Shown here: piece by piece, positions 561 to 6,124 of the stretch
Position numbering within the stretch: position 1 is the first letter of the stretch
Layout of the letters: the number at the start of each line of letters is the position of its first letter
Source: Candidatus Bathyarchaeota archaeon
GTDB lineage: Archaea > Thermoproteota > Bathyarchaeia > Bathyarchaeales > Bathycorpusculaceae
Assembly (NCBI GenBank): GCA_012515445.1
Contig: JAAYYI010000095.1
Coordinates: forward strand, 1-48,385
DNA: 48,385 nt
Direction: 5' to 3'
Notes under the pieces: generated by a model
Database searches by the model: none
What the model was told of the DNA's origin: nothing
Seen by the model: only the letters and a program-made list of their open reading frames with translations
Made by a program: the position numbers and the translations under genes

Positions 561-1229
561 ATGAGTAGGGACGACAAATTCGAACGTGACCTAACAGTTA
601 TTCTTGACCGATTAGCATTTGACGCTAAACCCACAACGGAAAACAAGTTATCCATGCTTAAAGATTGGCTGATTAAGCTGCAGCACCAGAACCTCGTGAA
701 AATCAACCACTCCGTCATGGAGCTGGTATGCGCCAAGTACCTTATTGAGCGGGACTACGAAATCCAGCTTGAGTATCCACTTAATGAACTGCTTAACTGC
801 GACCTGTATGGCATTAAAGGCTTAGGAAACATAGTGGTTGAAATCGAAACCGGTTTTATACCGCCTGAGAATGCGCTTGCGCCCCTCACGTATACTTCTG
901 CGCGGCTGGCAAGCAAGATCATCCGCTACAGCAGCTTTGCCGGAAAATTCGCATTAGGTGTGCCTCCGCATTACATTCTGCCATTCCCAAGAGTGTTGGC
1001 TAAGCCGCCGCGTAACCGTACCCAAGTTGAGATCGAGCAGGTTAAAGCACTTGTTGACGCCTACTACCAGAAGCCGCCCGTGACAGAGGAGGAGATACTT
1101 AACGCCCGCATACATGTAGTTTACATAATCGATGTAGACCGTGCGAGGGTGTCGGAGATTGAACCGGATACTTATCTGCACAGGGCAATGCAGAAAGGTG
1201 TCGTGTTTGACTGTTTATCCCCTGAATAG
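561..1229 (+). CDS. Conserved hypothetical protein, possible PD-(D/E)xK-fold
   Basis: A 222-residue soluble protein with no family I can name. The region around residues 50-100 (VMELVCAKYLIERDYEIQLE, then NCDLYGIKG, then NIVVEIETGF) resembles the core of PD-(D/E)xK nuclease-like folds: a helix, then a strand with Asp (about residue 80), a short loop, and a hydrophobic strand ending in E-I-E. The usual final Lys is absent (E-x-E instead of E-x-K), so it may be inactive or a variant. The C-terminal half has a Pro-rich stretch and a second hydrophobic strand (IHVVYIIDVD). ATG start with AAGGA 8 bases upstream. The GIY-YIG gene follows after 16 bases, so both may sit on one transcript. The fold assignment is a guess from pattern. 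Confidence 0.65.
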   Translation: MSRDDKFERDLTVILDRLAFDAKPTTENKLSMLKDWLIKLQHQNLVKINHSVMELVCAKYLIERDYEIQLEYPLNELLNCDLYGIKGLGNIVVEIETGFIPPENALAPLTYTSARLASKIIRYSSFAGKFALGVPPHYILPFPRVLAKPPRNRTQVEIEQVKALVDAYYQKPPVTEEEILNARIHVVYIIDVDRARVSEIEPDTYLHRAMQKGVVFDCLSPE

Positions 1230-1245
1230 CGGGGCACAAGTGGGC

Positions 1246-1500
1246 ATGTCGTTCTACGTGTACATACTCAAATGCGTGGATGGAAGCTTCTACACTGGCT
1301 ACACTAAAGACATAGATCAGCGCACAAGGCAGCATCAGACTGGCAAAGGTGCAAGATACACTAAGGCTCACCCGCCGGAGTGCTTGGCATACGTGGAGGT
1401 TTTTGATGAACGCGGCAAAGCAATGCGGCGAGAGCGCGAGATAAAGCGGCTCAGTCACCAGCAGAAGCATGCGCTGGTTGTTTCTCAGAAGAAGCCGTAG
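1246..1500 (+). CDS. GIY-YIG nuclease superfamily protein (YhbQ/UPF0213-like)
   Basis: An 84-residue single-domain GIY-YIG protein. The start MSFYVYILKC gives the 'YVY' strand and FYTGYT the 'YIG'-type second strand; R(T)RQHQTGKGARYTKAH is the conserved Arg/His/Lys-bearing helix, and the later ERGKAMRREREIK contains the Glu that binds metal in this family. Small GIY-YIG proteins of this size are common in bacteria and archaea; a role in DNA repair or stress is suspected but not proven. The ATG at 1246 was chosen because the domain begins there; an in-frame GTG lies two codons upstream at 1240. Its 3' end overlaps the convergent HAD/polyprenol-kinase gene by 16 bases. Confidence 0.85.
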   Translation: MSFYVYILKCVDGSFYTGYTKDIDQRTRQHQTGKGARYTKAHPPECLAYVEVFDERGKAMRREREIKRLSHQQKHALVVSQKKP

Positions 1501-2735
1501 CCTGTCAGCAGTGTTAGGGCGGCTCCGGTTAAGATCGGGACTGAAACGTTGTCGTTGATTGGCAGCGGAAGCACCTCGATTGTCATGGCGATTGCTGCTC
1601 CGACGAGTGCCAGAATTGGGGATACAAATAAGGTTCCTGCTAGGAAGGCGAAGAAGAACCCTGCCAGTGAGCCTTCGATGGTTTTGCCTTTGTTAAACGG
1701 GAGCGAAGTGGTTAGCATGCCTCCGAAGAGTGAGGCTGTGCTGTCGCCTAAGCAGAACATGGCGATTGCTGCTCCGCCTGCCTGTGTTGGAAAGAGCAGA
1801 AGCGTGGTTACGATGCCGAACGCGAAGTACAGTGGGGCTGCGGCGAAGCCGAAGAGTTCAGACTGGTTCGCGGCGTGACGCGTTACAGCGGAGATTACTG
1901 GCAAATTGAAGCCTTCTAGCCGTAGCAGTTCAGATGATGCGTAGATCAAGGCTATGGTTATGATTGCTGCCGCGACTATGGGGACTCCGATCATGGATGC
2001 GATGACCGGCATGAACAAGCCTGCGGCGTGGATGTCTTCGCGTACGAAGTCGTTGGTTGAGGGAAACGAGCGTTTGTGCTTTACGCCGTCGATTACCGGC
2101 AGGATTCCGGTTAGTTTACCGTTGACTACTCTGTCGGCTTTCACTCGGATCACGAAGTCGGCGTTGAAGCCGATCTTAAGTGCGCTCGGAAGGAAGATGC
2201 AGCGGTTGTTTCTGTCATCAGCTACTATCACGCTGTCTTCCACCGCTAAGTGTTCCCGGTTGAGGATGTCGCAGAGGATTTTGAGTTTGCCATTTTTAGT
2301 TATGGCGTCGCCCCAGATTTCGCCTGTTAAGCGGCCGTCGGATTCGCCTACTTCGACGCCGTAAGCGTAGTCGGCGCATATGGAGGCGGCTAGTTTCTTG
2401 ACTGCAGCGGTTGGGATACCTGAGCTTACGAGTGCCACTGTGCAGTTTCTGGCTTTAAGCTGACTGCATAGCCCATGAAGGTACATTGAAGCTGGGATTT
2501 TGCTAAAGACGCTTAGCATGGTGTCTACTTTTACGCCTCTTAGCTGGCTGTAGATACGTTTGAGCGCTGATTCTAAGCTGATGATGCCTGCTTCGTAGAG
2601 GAAACCGAAGATCAGGACTTTTAGAAGCGTAGTGGAGCCTATGGTTGTGGCTATCTGGTAGAAGAAGCGGTTCTTGGGAATCAGCACTCCCTCAACGTCG
2701 AGAACGACTAGTCGGGGTTTGGGTTTCTGGGCCAT
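1485..2735 (-). CDS. HAD phosphatase fused to a polyprenol (dolichol) kinase-like membrane domain
   Basis: A 416-residue two-domain protein. Residues 1-215 are a HAD-superfamily phosphatase of the phosphoserine-phosphatase type: motif I DVEGVL (D13, with Glu15 where most members have Asp), motif II LVSSG (S104/S105), a motif III Lys near 150-152, motif IV VADDRNN (D173, D174). Residues 235-416 form about six membrane helices with the signature of CTP-dependent dolichol/phytol kinases (SEC59/VTE5 family): GDSTASLFGG at 330-339, NKGKTIEGS at 348-356 and LPINDNVSVP near 391-400. One polypeptide thus carries a lipid-kinase-like and a phosphatase domain, suggesting recycling or tuning of polyprenyl phosphate or another isoprenoid alcohol. 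The gene lies 68 bases after the radical SAM gene and could share its transcript. Substrates are unknown. Confidence 0.8.
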   Translation of the reverse strand: MAQKPKPRLVVLDVEGVLIPKNRFFYQIATTIGSTTLLKVLIFGFLYEAGIISLESALKRIYSQLRGVKVDTMLSVFSKIPASMYLHGLCSQLKARNCTVALVSSGIPTAAVKKLAASICADYAYGVEVGESDGRLTGEIWGDAITKNGKLKILCDILNREHLAVEDSVIVADDRNNRCIFLPSALKIGFNADFVIRVKADRVVNGKLTGILPVIDGVKHKRSFPSTNDFVREDIHAAGLFMPVIASMIGVPIVAAAIITIALIYASSELLRLEGFNLPVISAVTRHAANQSELFGFAAAPLYFAFGIVTTLLLFPTQAGGAAIAMFCLGDSTASLFGGMLTTSLPFNKGKTIEGSLAGFFFAFLAGTLFVSPILALVGAAIAMTIEVLPLPINDNVSVPILTGAALTLLTGYGFF

Positions 2736-2803: not shown

Positions 2804-4150
2804 TTATGCTGTTGGTTTGCAGGTGCGCTCTTTGTTTTGCAGTTCAAGTGGGCAGCCGCCTCCGCATGCTTGCAAATCAGGGCAGTCGTGGCATTTAGTT
2901 TCTATATATTCGCGTTTACGTAGCTTGGCGGCGAGGGGGCTGTTCCAGATTTGCTGCCACGGCTCCGACAGAATGTTGCCCATTGATTCGAAGTAGCTTT
3001 GGCAGGGGTACACGTCGCCATTGGGGCCGACGCAGGCGTTTATCATGGCGGCTGTGCAGCTTTTGATTCCTAAACCGAGTTGTACGGGGTTGAAGCTGCA
3101 ATACTGGGTTGGGGTATACCAGAGGAACTTCAGTGCCAGCAGTTGGGCTTTGTCACGGACTTTAGGCAGAAGCGCTTTGAGTTCATCGGTTGTCAATGCG
3201 AATTCGTCGCTTGCTGAGGGCGCTTTTCCGCTGTAGATGAGGCTGTTGCATCCGAATGCATCTACGTCGAGTTCCTTTAGGTAGTCGATGGTTGTTAAGA
3301 AGTCAGCTGCGTTTTGCTTGGAGAGCGTGGTGTTGGTGGATACATAGATGTCGGATTTTACTGCGTTCTCGATGCCTACGACGGTTTCTTTCCAGCTGCC
3401 ATCGGCGCCGGTCATGGCGTCGTGGACTTTGGGTTTGTGGGATTCAAGGGTTATCTGCACGAAGTCCAGCCCCGCCTTCTCGAGCTTTGATACGTAGGCT
3501 GGGTCTTTGAGACGTCGTCCGTTAGTGATTAAGCCTGCAACTAAGCCTTTTTTCTGCGTGTAGGCGAGCAGTTCTGGGAGGTCTTCTCGCAGTGTTGGTT
3601 CGCCGCCGGTGAAGGTTAGGATGAAGACGCCGACGTCGCTTAGTCGGTCGATGGTCTGCTTCCACTGCTCCGTTGAGAGTTCCGGTGTTTCGTGTGGGCC
3701 GCCGGCGTAGCAGTGAACGCAGTCGTTTTGGCAGCGGAAAGTCAGTGCCATATCCATGCGCAGAGGCGCGGAGTACTGGTGGCTGAAAGGTTCCTCTCTT
3801 TGGATTTCTAGGTAGGTTACGGGGTCGATTTTCTGCGTCTGCGCCAGCGTGCTGATGGTGAAGACGAGTTTTTCGTAGTCGGCTTTGGCTTGTTCGGCAC
3901 CGACGCGGTACATGCTGCGAATTTGTTTTATTGCTTCTGCTTCGGAGATACCCTGCATGAAGTAGTATGCATATGCGGTGGCGGTTTGGTTGAGATGAAG
4001 CACGTTGTTGCCGTTTATGACCATGACGCCCTGCCCCTCGTGCTCAACTCGGAGCTGCAGTGACATTCCGGCGTACTTGTCTTGGCCTCGGTAGCTGTAT
4101 CGTCCGAACGGAACATGCTGTTTTTTGCCTAAGTGTTTTAGGAAACTCAT
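2804..4150 (-). CDS. Radical SAM/SPASM enzyme with PqqD-like N-terminal domain
   Basis: A 448-residue peptide-modifying-type radical SAM enzyme. The radical SAM cluster motif is FRCQNDCVHCY (C140, C144, C147), followed by the glycine-rich FTGGEPTLRED. The N-terminal part (about residues 36-105, INGNNVLHLNQTATAYAY and on) has the pattern of a PqqD-like domain, the leader-peptide recognition element of RiPP systems. The C-terminus is a SPASM domain with a full set of auxiliary-cluster cysteines (SCTAAMINAC, GDVYPC, CHDCPDLQACGGGCP, final C444). The start MSFLKH was chosen over an upstream in-frame codon because it has GGAGG 9 bases before it; that GGAGG lies inside the Gly codons ending the preceding gene, so the two genes are translationally linked. 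The product probably modifies the Cys-rich tail encoded immediately upstream (inference). Confidence 0.9.
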   Translation of the reverse strand: MSFLKHLGKKQHVPFGRYSYRGQDKYAGMSLQLRVEHEGQGVMVINGNNVLHLNQTATAYAYYFMQGISEAEAIKQIRSMYRVGAEQAKADYEKLVFTISTLAQTQKIDPVTYLEIQREEPFSHQYSAPLRMDMALTFRCQNDCVHCYAGGPHETPELSTEQWKQTIDRLSDVGVFILTFTGGEPTLREDLPELLAYTQKKGLVAGLITNGRRLKDPAYVSKLEKAGLDFVQITLESHKPKVHDAMTGADGSWKETVVGIENAVKSDIYVSTNTTLSKQNAADFLTTIDYLKELDVDAFGCNSLIYSGKAPSASDEFALTTDELKALLPKVRDKAQLLALKFLWYTPTQYCSFNPVQLGLGIKSCTAAMINACVGPNGDVYPCQSYFESMGNILSEPWQQIWNSPLAAKLRKREYIETKCHDCPDLQACGGGCPLELQNKERTCKPTA

Positions 4151-4151
4151 T

Positions 4152-5777
4152 TTATCTTCCTCCTCCACCCGCACAGGCGCATGCACATGACACGCAGGCA
4201 CACGCGCAGGCGCAAGCTGCACAAGCACATACGCATCCGCTTTTATGCGGTGCGGGCTCGTGGCTGGCTTTAGGCGGCGGTGGTACTATGGAGTTGGCGA
4301 ATTTCTCGAGGTTGACTACGATGTTGCTTGAGGTTTTCTCCAGTGAAGTGGCGATGTTGTTGGCGAAGTCCGCGCCGGGTATTGCTGGTGCGGGTCCTGA
4401 CTGCGCTGGGTTGCCTATGTTTGGGCGATATGTTGGGTGCGGGTGATAGATTGTGTAGCCGTACCACCACCAGAACCACATGGGCTGCGGCTGGAATGGG
4501 CGGTCGCGGAATATGGTTTCGGTTTTTACGCGCTGGTTGGGATCCATCATGAGCCAGAGCAGCTGCTCGTCGTAGGCGCTGGACGCCAACTCGGGGGTGC
4601 CTGCCATCTCGACCTGCTTCCATGCTTGGTCGACGATTTTACGGTAGTAATCAACAGTGTCCTTTCTGCTGTAGCCTTTTAGTTTCTCTTCGGTGGTGTC
4701 CCGGAGGAACATGACTGTTTTGGCGAGTTTCTCCTCGTCAAGTGATCCGTCGGGCTTGAGGCTGTTTAGGAAGTCGATTTCGTAGTAGCGCAGCGGGTTG
4801 TCTTGGGTGCTTGTTTTGTTCTCGTAGGGCGGTAGAACCTTGAGCTTTAGCGAGGGCTTTGTTTCTTCGGCCCAGACTGCACGTTTCTGCAGCAGACTAT
4901 AGAGGATCTCTGTTACCAGCTGCGGCGGCTTCATATCGAGAAGGTATGATGCCTCGACTGCGGTTAAGCCGCGTTTTACTCCGAGGGTTTCCATGCTGAC
5001 TCGGGGCTTCTGGTAACTGCTTTTGCTGGCGCGGTAAATAATGAACAAAAAGACAGCGATGGCTATGAACACCGCTACCACCGCCAAGATGATTATGACA
5101 AAGTCGGAGCCAAAACCGCCTGAGGATGAAGCAGGAACATAATTTGGCATGTACTGGGCTGGGAAGGATACGCCGACCATAAACTGCTCGTTTGCGCCGA
5201 TGGAGGGTTTTTCCCAGTAAACCGCTGTTCTGCCTTCCACTGTGGAGGTGCCGTTGTAGAAGACCTCTGTGGTTTTCACTTCACCAACCTGCACGCCTTC
5301 CGGCAGCACGATTTGGATGCGGACATCGTTAATCCCAACTGATCCGTCCCATTGCGGTATGAATTGCATGCCGTAGTTGCCGGGGTTAGTGGTGTCGTTA
5401 ACTATCATGCCTGCGACGTTGGTGGTTATGGTCCACCAGATTGTTTCTCCCACGGTTATCGGGCGAGTGAAATCCACCGACGCCACGTCGTCATTGAACT
5501 TGTAGGTGTGCAGTGAGTTGCCGTACTGGTCAACCGCTTCTCCAATGGTGAAGTCACGCTTAGGTTGGCCGAGGTCAAACGCGTTAATGGTGCCCTGCGT
5601 GACGGTTATACTTACATTGTAGATGAGGTCGATGGTGCCGTCTTGCTGGATGAATATCTGCGCCCACTCCTGATTCACCGTATACTGGTTGGTTTGAGCC
5701 TGCGCTACGCTAGCCAGTGAAGCCGAAGCGATGCAGACTGCCAGAAGGGCGACAAAAAGCGCTGTTCGGTTTACCAT
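4152..5777 (-). CDS. DUF2207 membrane protein with C-terminal Cys-rich (CxC-repeat) tail
   Basis: A 541-residue protein with a signal peptide (about 1-28), an extracytoplasmic beta-rich domain of DUF2207 type (about 30-220), one membrane helix (about 225-248, FVIIILAVVAVFIAIAV), and a cytoplasmic part with a winged-helix-like stretch (about 265-305) and a helical region. After a Pro-rich linker it ends in an extraordinary tail: ten cysteines at 515, 517, 519, 522, 524, 526, 528, 531, 533 and 535, almost all alternating with alanine, then GGGGR. DUF2207 proteins of bacteria often end in a Gly-rich tail; here it is Cys-rich and predicted cytoplasmic, within reach of the radical SAM/SPASM enzyme encoded 1 base downstream. 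The start codon overlaps the stop of the preceding zinc-ribbon gene (ATGGTAA). Domain assignment is firm; the role of the tail is inferred. Confidence 0.85.
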   Translation of the reverse strand: MVNRTALFVALLAVCIASASLASVAQAQTNQYTVNQEWAQIFIQQDGTIDLIYNVSITVTQGTINAFDLGQPKRDFTIGEAVDQYGNSLHTYKFNDDVASVDFTRPITVGETIWWTITTNVAGMIVNDTTNPGNYGMQFIPQWDGSVGINDVRIQIVLPEGVQVGEVKTTEVFYNGTSTVEGRTAVYWEKPSIGANEQFMVGVSFPAQYMPNYVPASSSGGFGSDFVIIILAVVAVFIAIAVFLFIIYRASKSSYQKPRVSMETLGVKRGLTAVEASYLLDMKPPQLVTEILYSLLQKRAVWAEETKPSLKLKVLPPYENKTSTQDNPLRYYEIDFLNSLKPDGSLDEEKLAKTVMFLRDTTEEKLKGYSRKDTVDYYRKIVDQAWKQVEMAGTPELASSAYDEQLLWLMMDPNQRVKTETIFRDRPFQPQPMWFWWWYGYTIYHPHPTYRPNIGNPAQSGPAPAIPGADFANNIATSLEKTSSNIVVNLEKFANSIVPPPPKASHEPAPHKSGCVCACAACACACACVSCACACAGGGGR

Positions 5778-6124
5778 TTCGGTTCCTCAGTTACTTCAAA
5801 AGTTGTGCCACAGTATGGACACTTAACATAGGGTACGCCTTGGGTTATTTTGATTTGGTCTGCGTTTATGCTTCCTCCGCAGTTGGGGCACTTGATCTGC
5901 GCCGCCGCCATGCGGCCTGAGACTTCGAGGCGTTGCACGACGGTTTTGGGTCTGCGATTAAGATACCAGACGCCGGCAATAACGACCATGCCTATCAGGA
6001 ACAGGACGATGCTTACGGCGAGCCTGGTTGTAGTGGCCTGCACGGAGGCTGCTAGCCCAAAGATCACTGCGAAGAAGAAACAGATAATAGCGATTATTCC
6101 GCCGATAACAGTGGAGATTTTCAT
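5771..6124 (-). CDS. Small membrane protein with C-terminal zinc ribbon
   Basis: A 117-residue protein with two membrane helices (about 4-28 and 34-56) and a cytoplasmic zinc ribbon (CPNCGGSI about 80-87, then CPYCGTTFEV about 102-111). It is the first gene of the operon encoding the Cys-tailed DUF2207 protein and the radical SAM enzyme, overlapping the former by 7 bases. The ATG at 6124 was preferred to one at 6145 because the likely TATA box (6151-6156) lies 29 bases upstream of 6124, giving a leaderless message, and would abut 6145. Its role is unknown; small membrane zinc ribbons often act as assembly or docking partners. Fixed association with the DUF2207/radical SAM pair is inferred from gene overlap. 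Confidence 0.75.
   Translation of the reverse strand: MKISTVIGGIIAIICFFFAVIFGLAASVQATTTRLAVSIVLFLIGMVVIAGVWYLNRRPKTVVQRLEVSGRMAAAQIKCPNCGGSINADQIKITQGVPYVKCPYCGTTFEVTEEPKW

What the first reader, a model, noticed from the sequence alone, without database searches (positions are those of the whole stretch)
2804..6124. Radical SAM/SPASM enzyme paired with a membrane protein ending in a ten-cysteine CxC tail
The DUF2207 protein (4152-5777) ends in ten Cys alternating mostly with Ala, then GGGGR, predicted in the cytoplasm after its single membrane helix. The next gene encodes a radical SAM/SPASM enzyme with a PqqD-like peptide-binding domain, and its ribosome binding site is built from the Gly codons of that tail. 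SPASM enzymes typically modify peptides, often at Cys (thioether links). The reading is a RiPP-like modification of a tail fixed to a membrane protein, perhaps making a metal-binding or redox patch. The zinc-ribbon gene overlaps upstream. I cannot name a described system with this layout.
Basis: partly seen in the sequence, partly recalled or inferred. Interest (0 to 1): 0.88.

Follow-up and report, generated by a model that had tools for sequence, protein, structure and literature searches.

The report
Enzyme-paired cysteine tail on membrane protein
Some archaea and bacteria share a membrane protein that ends in an almost unchanging cysteine-alanine tail and nearly always travels with a radical enzyme of the peptide-modifying kind, so the tail is probably chemically rebuilt in place on the membrane protein.

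Summary
In a Bathyarchaeota-like genome a one-helix membrane protein (4152-5777) ends in a ten-Cys tail, CVCACAACACACACVSCACACAGGGGR. The next gene (2804-4150) encodes a radical SAM/SPASM enzyme with a PqqD-like domain; a zinc-ribbon gene overlaps upstream. The unit is widespread: Bathyarchaeota, other archaea, Chloroflexota (including the isolates Bellilinea and Levilinea) and a few other bacteria. In own-phylum genomes 27 of 30 with the membrane protein also have the enzyme. In Chloroflexota, queries without this tail found 24 strong homologues; all 24 carry tail and enzyme. The tail is far more constrained than the body (pN/pS 0.041 against 0.343). The nearest solved enzymes are SkfB, SuiB, CteB and PqqE. 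A sibling with a different Cys tail (ACHSAC repeats) has its own enzyme. Bacteria often add an enzyme copy without the catalytic cysteines. Best reading: the enzyme modifies the tail in place, RiPP-like, likeliest by thioethers to Ala or Gly. One genus has the enzyme without the tail. Chemistry and role are untested.

The parts
5771..6124 (-). Small membrane protein with C-terminal zinc ribbon, ending ...EEPKW; overlaps the next gene by 7 bases
   Evidence: (MJ0042-type zinc finger 27.3 bits, cut-off 20.9); present in 28 of 30 family loci
4152..5777 (-). DUF2207-like membrane protein, 541 aa, carrier of the tail
5694..5777 (-). Signal-peptide-like N-terminus (residues 1-28; boundary by eye)
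   Evidence: helix 4-22
5160..5693 (-). Predicted external beta domain (residues 29-206)
5025..5108 (-). Transmembrane helix (residues 224-251)
4449..4985 (-). Cytosolic domain (residues 265-443)
   Evidence: includes the best conserved part of the body
4155..4235 (-). Ten-Cys tail CVCACAACACACACVSCACACAGGGGR (residues 515-541)
4158..4166 (-). Shine-Dalgarno-like GGAGGAGGA inside the Gly codons of the tail
   Evidence: sequence
2804..4150 (-). Radical SAM/SPASM enzyme, 448 aa
3839..4105 (-). PqqD-like (RRE) N-terminal domain of the enzyme, about residues 16-104
3710..3733 (-). CxxxCxxC radical SAM motif (C140, C144, C147)
   Evidence: 67 of 67 rows of A7
2852..3058 (-). SPASM region, C365 to C433
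   Evidence: PF13186 45.4 bits; C365 and C383 in 67 of 67, C420/C423/C429/C433 in 65 of 67 rows

Best explanation
This is a RiPP-like maturation system whose substrate is the C-terminal tail of a membrane protein rather than a free peptide. Shown: the enzyme gene follows its presumed substrate, the two co-occur, the tail is under strong protein-level constraint, and the enzyme belongs to the PqqD-SPASM peptide modifiers. Inferred: the PqqD-like domain docks on the linker before the tail, and the radical site acts on the Cys-Ala repeat, most likely joining Cys sulfurs to Ala or Gly carbons as thioethers; an auxiliary cluster with an open site may hold the Cys thiolate, as reported for CteB (passage of PMC8172795). 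Speculative: the repeat is two or more Cys-Ala blocks parted by VS or by one Gly, so a hairpin with nested bridges is possible, and the product stays anchored at the inner membrane face as a metal-binding or redox patch. The zinc-ribbon protein is a frequent, unexplained partner. Sub-estimates: tail is the enzyme's substrate 0.85; thioether given that 0.55; metal or redox patch 0.35. The confidence below is for the first sentence.
For: Co-occurrence in own phylum: membrane protein in 30 of 398 genomes, enzyme in 30 of 397, 27 shared; chance p 3e-35 by genome and 3e-17 by genus, treating them as independent. Own family: 30 of 30 fetched loci have the tail, 29 the enzyme, the missing one at a contig end. 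Chloroflexota with tail-free or other-tail queries: 24 of 24 strong homologues have tail and enzyme. Tail pN/pS 0.041 against body 0.343 at equal pS. Sibling family with another Cys tail has its own PqqD-SPASM enzyme. Four tail-less homologues have no such enzyme in the stretches read. Enzyme nearest to SkfB, SuiB, CteB and PqqE. Other CACACA hits in 14 own-phylum genomes look like chance.
Against: No chemistry was seen. Two genomes of one genus (G321, G445) have the enzyme with no detectable membrane protein or tail. L108 has an intact tail but only a truncated enzyme, and no full one elsewhere. The enzyme is not always directly downstream: it lies upstream in L061 and L062 and on the other strand in L085. 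The PqqD score is below cut-off in the window enzyme. A last C-terminal Cys of the enzyme is poorly kept (18 of 67 rows). Cys-rich tails can bind metal without modification. Some close structural matches (PqqE, SuiB, and BlsE, which does not act on a peptide) do not make thioethers.
Confidence: 0.78

Rival explanations
1. The enzyme modifies the tail, but not by thioethers: for example Cys oxidation to formylglycine as by anSME, carbon-carbon links, or epimerisation.
For: anSME and the epimerase EpeE are among the structural matches; SuiB and PqqE, close matches, make carbon-carbon bonds (recalled). The same reaction on a repeat has precedent: TvgB makes cyclopropylglycine on TVGG repeats (passages of PMC9062424).
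Against: The best match by sequence and by fold is SkfB, a thioether maker, and the conserved residue is Cys at every second place. No anSME-type Cys motif (recalled) is evident in the tails.
Confidence: 0.35
2. The tail is an unmodified metal- or iron-sulfur-binding segment, and the enzyme serves another substrate or matures something else in the same pathway.
For: CxC repeats and a zinc-ribbon partner suit metal binding; two genomes have the enzyme without the tail.
Against: 27 of 30 co-occurrence in own phylum, 24 of 24 in Chloroflexota, and a second tail type with its own enzyme all tie the enzyme to the tail. No other conserved small peptide gene was noticed, though recurring-neighbour clustering covered only frames of 80 aa or more.
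Confidence: 0.1
3. The tail is not substrate but helper: it lends Cys ligands, sulfur or electrons to the enzyme, or anchors it at the membrane.
For: One-to-one linkage and a possible open auxiliary site would also fit this.
Against: The enzyme carries a substrate-binding PqqD-like domain, and no alternative substrate gene was recognised.
Confidence: 0.05
4. The Gly end and the repeat are a by-product of DNA constraint, such as the ribosome site of the next gene.
For: GGAGGAGGA in the Gly codons is a good Shine-Dalgarno site in the window.
Against: In loci found without the tail, the CACACAGGGR end is kept where the enzyme frame opens 103, 147 and 535 bases downstream (L171, L180, L179). Six tail-seeded loci with heuristic starts 83-683 bases away agree, but their seed included part of the Gly run. 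Synonymous sites in the tail vary as much as in the body.
Confidence: 0.01

Closest known systems
TIGR04222 membrane proteins with MNIO (DUF692) enzymes
   Same: Membrane proteins with C-terminal Cys-rich low-complexity tails, proposed to be modified on the protein (passages of PMC12452194); weak similarity of relatives to the TIGR04222 model (16.1-25.2 bits).
   Different: Below the 43-bit cut-off, and the window protein itself gives no hit; the enzyme here is radical SAM/SPASM, not MNIO; tails are regular Cys-Ala repeats; the paper predicts TIGR04222 tails in the periplasm, here the tail is predicted inside.
Sactipeptide and ranthipeptide systems (SkfB, CteB/SCIFF)
   Same: Same enzyme architecture (PqqD-like RRE, radical SAM, SPASM or twitch), closest solved relatives; Cys-rich substrate segment.
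   Different: Their substrates are short precursor peptides; here a 541-aa membrane protein. No peptidase or exporter gene recurs beside it in the clusters that were looked at.
QhpD with QhpC (quinohemoprotein amine dehydrogenase)
   Same: A radical SAM/SPASM enzyme that makes thioethers on a protein subunit (passages of PMC7876137).
   Different: QhpD links Cys to Asp/Glu; the present tails have neither in the repeat, and the carrier is a membrane protein.
DUF2207 membrane proteins (PF09972)
   Same: Signal peptide, beta domain, helix, cytosolic domain, low-complexity C-terminus; profile-profile probability 98.1 over 347 columns.
   Different: Bona fide members found in three genomes searched have Gly-rich ends without Cys and, by eye, further hydrophobic stretches; the present family scores on no Pfam model.

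Membership tests
Radical SAM/SPASM enzymes | PF04055 and PF13186 above cut-off, CxxxCxxC present | tested here: met
   89.8 and 45.4 bits (cut-offs 29.5, 21.5); motif in 67 of 67 rows
PqqD-like RiPP recognition element (RRE) | PF05402 above cut-off or the fold | tested here: inconclusive
   Window enzyme 17.0, L126 enzyme 21.2 against 23.4 bits; the second (dead) copy 29.2 and the ACHSAC enzyme 30.8 pass. Model has the expected strands and helices and matches SuiB and 5why/5wgg along 431-466 alignment columns
Sactipeptide/ranthipeptide systems | Short precursor peptide | tested here: not met
   The tail is part of a 541-aa membrane protein
Sactipeptide/ranthipeptide systems | Cys thioether in the product | not testable with these tools
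   needs mass spectrometry
DUF2207 (PF09972) | Score over Pfam cut-off | tested here: not met
   no PF09972 hit for the window protein at E 0.1 or for L126, L129 and L270 proteins at E 1
DUF2207 (PF09972) | Distant homology by profile comparison | tested here: met
   hhalign probability 98.1, E 6.7e-14
TIGR04222 with MNIO | TIGR04222 over cut-off (43 bits) | tested here: not met
   no hit for the window protein; 16.3, 16.1, 25.2 and 19.1 bits for relatives
TIGR04222 with MNIO | MNIO gene nearby | not tested
   no systematic search; only 10 neighbour proteins were scanned with Pfam and none was MNIO
QhpD-type protein maturation | Cys-to-Asp/Glu acceptor residues in the modified segment | tested here: not met
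   no Asp or Glu between the first tail Cys and the Gly end in the 77 tails listed

The most novel reading that the evidence does not exclude
A separate class of protein-anchored RiPP-like cofactor: DUF2207/TIGR04222-like membrane scaffolds serve as general carriers for Cys-rich tails that different enzymes rebuild in place (radical SAM on CACACA tails, another radical SAM on ACHSAC tails, perhaps MNIO on TIGR04222 tails). In Chloroflexota the catalyst works with a catalytically dead twin that helps hold the substrate. The finished tail would be a permanent metal or redox patch on the inner membrane face, shared by archaea and bacteria.
Probability: 0.35. Interest if true: 0.92.

Novelty: new variant of a known kind. 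Interest (0 to 1): 0.82.

Why it matters
Radical SAM maturases are mostly studied on small peptides. Here a conserved enzyme and tail pair would build a modified patch on a membrane protein, in uncultured Bathyarchaeota but also in cultured Anaerolineae, so it can be tested directly. The constant core of the tail has only Cys, Ala and Gly, which limits the possible chemistry sharply. It would also give a functional handle on a DUF2207-like membrane family and on a radical SAM pseudoenzyme.

Tried and rejected
Stand-alone tail peptides: a 145-aa frame in G052 looked like one, but the rest of the gene is hidden by a run of unknown bases.

CACACA tails on other proteins: 41 of 397 own-phylum genomes match the DNA pattern; the reversed control pattern matches in 8. 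27 of the 41 have the membrane protein. In the other 14, loci of seven (G003, G009, G014, G025, G050, G069, G371) and fetched stretches of seven (G137, G182, G255, G297, G310, G315, G328) were inspected; none showed a convincing tail protein. Short frames with CACACAC in G009, G182 and G328 look like chance.

ACHSAC-like hits in G517, G574 and G628 are simple repeats. Anti-phage defence: PADLOC gave only viperin models on the radical SAM domain. A PDB sequence search with the membrane-protein body gave nothing. Distances of enzyme and membrane protein correlate (r 0.93 over 43 loci, 0.86 over 21 bacterial), as shared descent alone would give, so this is not used as evidence.

Literature (open-access library only): DUF2207 plus radical SAM, 0 papers; tail letters, 0; layout terms, 0. 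The listings show no title that describes the pair; of those papers only passages of PMC9062424, PMC8172795, PMC8326336 and PMC7876137 were seen, and passages of PMC12452194. The 2011 radical SAM target-peptide survey by Haft and Basu (recalled) is not held, so an earlier mention there cannot be excluded.

Alignments A7 and A8 come from those loci. In one search, 7 of 37 match rows came without a locus; stretches for five of them were read later, one is the second half of L038, and G056:C10 was not read. Loci from different calls overlap, so counts such as 122 enzyme frames include the same gene more than once.
Full report
WHAT IS THERE. Three genes run on the minus strand: a small membrane protein with a zinc ribbon (5771-6124), a 541-aa membrane protein (4152-5777) and a 448-aa radical SAM/SPASM enzyme (2804-4150). 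The membrane protein ends in CVCACAACACACACVSCACACAGGGGR, with ten of its eleven cysteines in the last 27 residues; no other frame of at least 100 aa in the window looks like this (1 of 83). In an enzyme tree the window row falls among Bathyarchaeota records (support 100/95).

ANATOMY. AlphaFold2 models the membrane protein (mean pLDDT 82.3, pTM 0.47) as signal-like helix, beta domain, one transmembrane helix, a second domain and a disordered tail. The beta domain resembles a subunit of eukaryotic oligosaccharyltransferase (ribophorin I, name recalled) and the N-terminal part of M1 aminopeptidases such as LTA4H (query TM-scores only about 0.27). No Pfam or NCBIfam model is reached, but a profile of the tail-less body matches bona fide DUF2207 proteins (probability 98.1). 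The enzyme model (pLDDT 89.4) has an N-terminal PqqD-like domain, a radical SAM barrel and a SPASM region. The first ten structural matches are SkfB, SuiB, 5why/5wgg (5wgg is CteB) and PqqE; by sequence profile SkfB leads with E 1.4e-24, then PqqE.

CONSERVATION OF THE TAIL. In the own family 33 of 90 genomes match the membrane protein. All 30 loci returned carry the tail, 29 the enzyme (in broken pieces in L037) and 28 the zinc ribbon; the missing enzyme (L035) is at a contig end. Over 29 aligned sequences the tail has pN 0.031 against 0.261 for the body at equal pS (0.76), so it is the protein sequence that is held constant. The Gly end is not only a ribosome site: in loci found with a tail-less profile it is kept where the enzyme frame opens 103, 147 and 535 bases downstream (L171, L180, L179).

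CO-OCCURRENCE. In 397-398 own-phylum genomes, 30 have the membrane protein and 30 the enzyme at E at most 1e-60; 27 are shared (my tally of the two tables; one of them, G074, has both genes broken into frames). Of the three with membrane protein only, G005 runs into a contig end, G236 stops within 50 bases of one, and G067 is a weak tail-less homologue. Of the three with enzyme only, G381 lies at a contig end; G321 and G445, one genus, show neither the membrane protein nor the tail pattern. In Chloroflexota the tail-less profile matched 21 of 301 genomes; the 19 strong ones (over 340 bits) all have the tail and an enzyme in the stretch (in G680 the membrane gene is split between frames). A second query with a different tail, over 370 genomes, added five more, all with both. 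The tail-seeded scan adds context: of bacterial loci with at least 1500 bp downstream, 43 of 46 have an enzyme with CxxxCxxC in the stretch; of archaeal ones, 25 of 25. Of the three misses, two genomes have it elsewhere (G451, 599 bits; G757, 508 bits) and L108 has only a truncated copy. L138, with 1377 bp downstream and so outside that count, also lacks an adjacent enzyme and has one elsewhere (G452, 547 bits). The enzyme is not always directly downstream: it is upstream in L061 and L062 and on the opposite strand in L085, L117 and L119.

VARIATIONS. Archaeal tails mostly have ten Cys; the commonest bacterial one is CACACACAGCACACAGGGR (37 of 77 tails listed, a tail-seeded set). In Chloroflexota a second enzyme-like gene is common (30 of 36 bacterial loci with at least 5 kb downstream). 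In L126 it keeps the PqqD-like domain (29.2 bits, over cut-off). None of the 36 full copies keeps CxxxCxxC, whereas 120 of 122 strong enzyme frames do, the other two being one broken gene seen twice. A methyltransferase cluster occurs in 26 of those 36 loci but may include unrelated methyltransferases. The zinc-ribbon gene is upstream in 46 of 47 bacterial but only 12 of 21 archaeal loci with room for it. L129 (Theionarchaea) and L139 (labelled Methanomicrobia) instead carry two CxxC motifs inside the membrane protein, matching a Pfam zinc-ribbon-like model in L129 (DUF7575, 30.0 bits).

A SECOND TAIL TYPE. Two Chloroflexota genomes encode a divergent homologue ending in ACHSAC and VHDAC repeats, followed at once by a PqqD-radical SAM-SPASM gene. 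Four tail-less homologues (L065, L186, L187, L188) have no such enzyme in the stretches read. So enzyme and Cys tail go together even when the tail sequence changes, though two genomes are few.

SPREAD. Relatives occur in Bathyarchaeota, other Thermoproteota, Methanocella, Theionarchaea and Methanomicrobia records, Chloroflexota including two isolates, two Edwardsbacteria records and single records labelled Zixibacteria and Cloacimonadota (best 80 of 187 only). The enzyme tree separates archaeal from bacterial rows except for the Cloacimonadota row, a long branch; its root is a midpoint for drawing. Old vertical descent or an old transfer would both fit.

HOW IT LIKELY WORKS. Shown: linkage, constraint, enzyme family, and topology by prediction. 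Inferred: the PqqD-like domain binds the linker, the radical centre attacks the Cys-Ala repeat, and the product remains anchored. SkfB and CteB form thioethers (passages of PMC8172795), and QhpD does so on a protein subunit (passages of PMC7876137). Since the constant core holds only Cys, Ala and Gly, a bridge within it must end on one of these. A metal or redox role is a guess.

COMPARISON. The closest published idea is that some TIGR04222 membrane proteins with Cys tails are MNIO substrates (passages of PMC12452194). Relatives of the present protein score 16-25 bits on TIGR04222 (cut-off 43) and the window protein none, so it is not a member, but the resemblance suggests a shared scaffold logic with a different enzyme. 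No paper describing the present pair was found in the searches named, in an open-access library.

VERDICT. The modification hypothesis survives its own refutation test; chemistry and role remain to be shown.

Noticed in passing
L270:3669-6847 and L271:2649-5824: Divergent homologue of the membrane protein with a different Cys tail (ACHSAC/VHDAC repeats), followed at once by its own PqqD-radical SAM-SPASM gene; two Chloroflexota genomes.
   Followed up: partly
L126:11086-12270 and 35 similar genes: Second radical SAM-like gene in Chloroflexota loci without CxxxCxxC: a probable pseudoenzyme partner.
   Followed up: partly
L126:12222-13004: Class I methyltransferase gene near the unit in 26 of 36 bacterial loci with 5 kb downstream; could be a further tail-modifying enzyme or unrelated.
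   Followed up: partly
L107:12603-13625 and 8 similar genes: Unknown protein recurring downstream in 9 loci, no Pfam or NCBIfam hit.
   Followed up: no
L187:682-3381: The external beta domain of the family inside a 900-aa protein that by eye starts with a protein kinase and ends with a sulfatase-modifying-factor-like domain.
   Followed up: no
window 5160-5693: Predicted beta domain resembles an oligosaccharyltransferase subunit (ribophorin I, recalled) and M1 aminopeptidase N-terminal domains.
   Followed up: no
L129:4127-5737 and L139:8001-9587: Two CxxC motifs (zinc-ribbon-like) inside the membrane protein, in loci where no separate zinc-ribbon gene was found.
   Followed up: partly
L274:3797-4941: Tail-less cytosolic-domain homologue with a zinc-ribbon gene beside it and no radical SAM gene in 8 kb.
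   Followed up: partly
L265:4273-5628 and L266:5648-7027: Enzyme orthologues (about 522 bits) in one genus with no membrane protein or tail found: possibly another substrate.
   Followed up: partly
window 1141-1500: GIY-YIG nuclease domain protein (64.0 bits).
   Followed up: no
window 1485-2735: HAD-like N-terminal part with a multi-helix C-terminal part; relatives lie two genes after the membrane protein in 5 loci.
   Followed up: no
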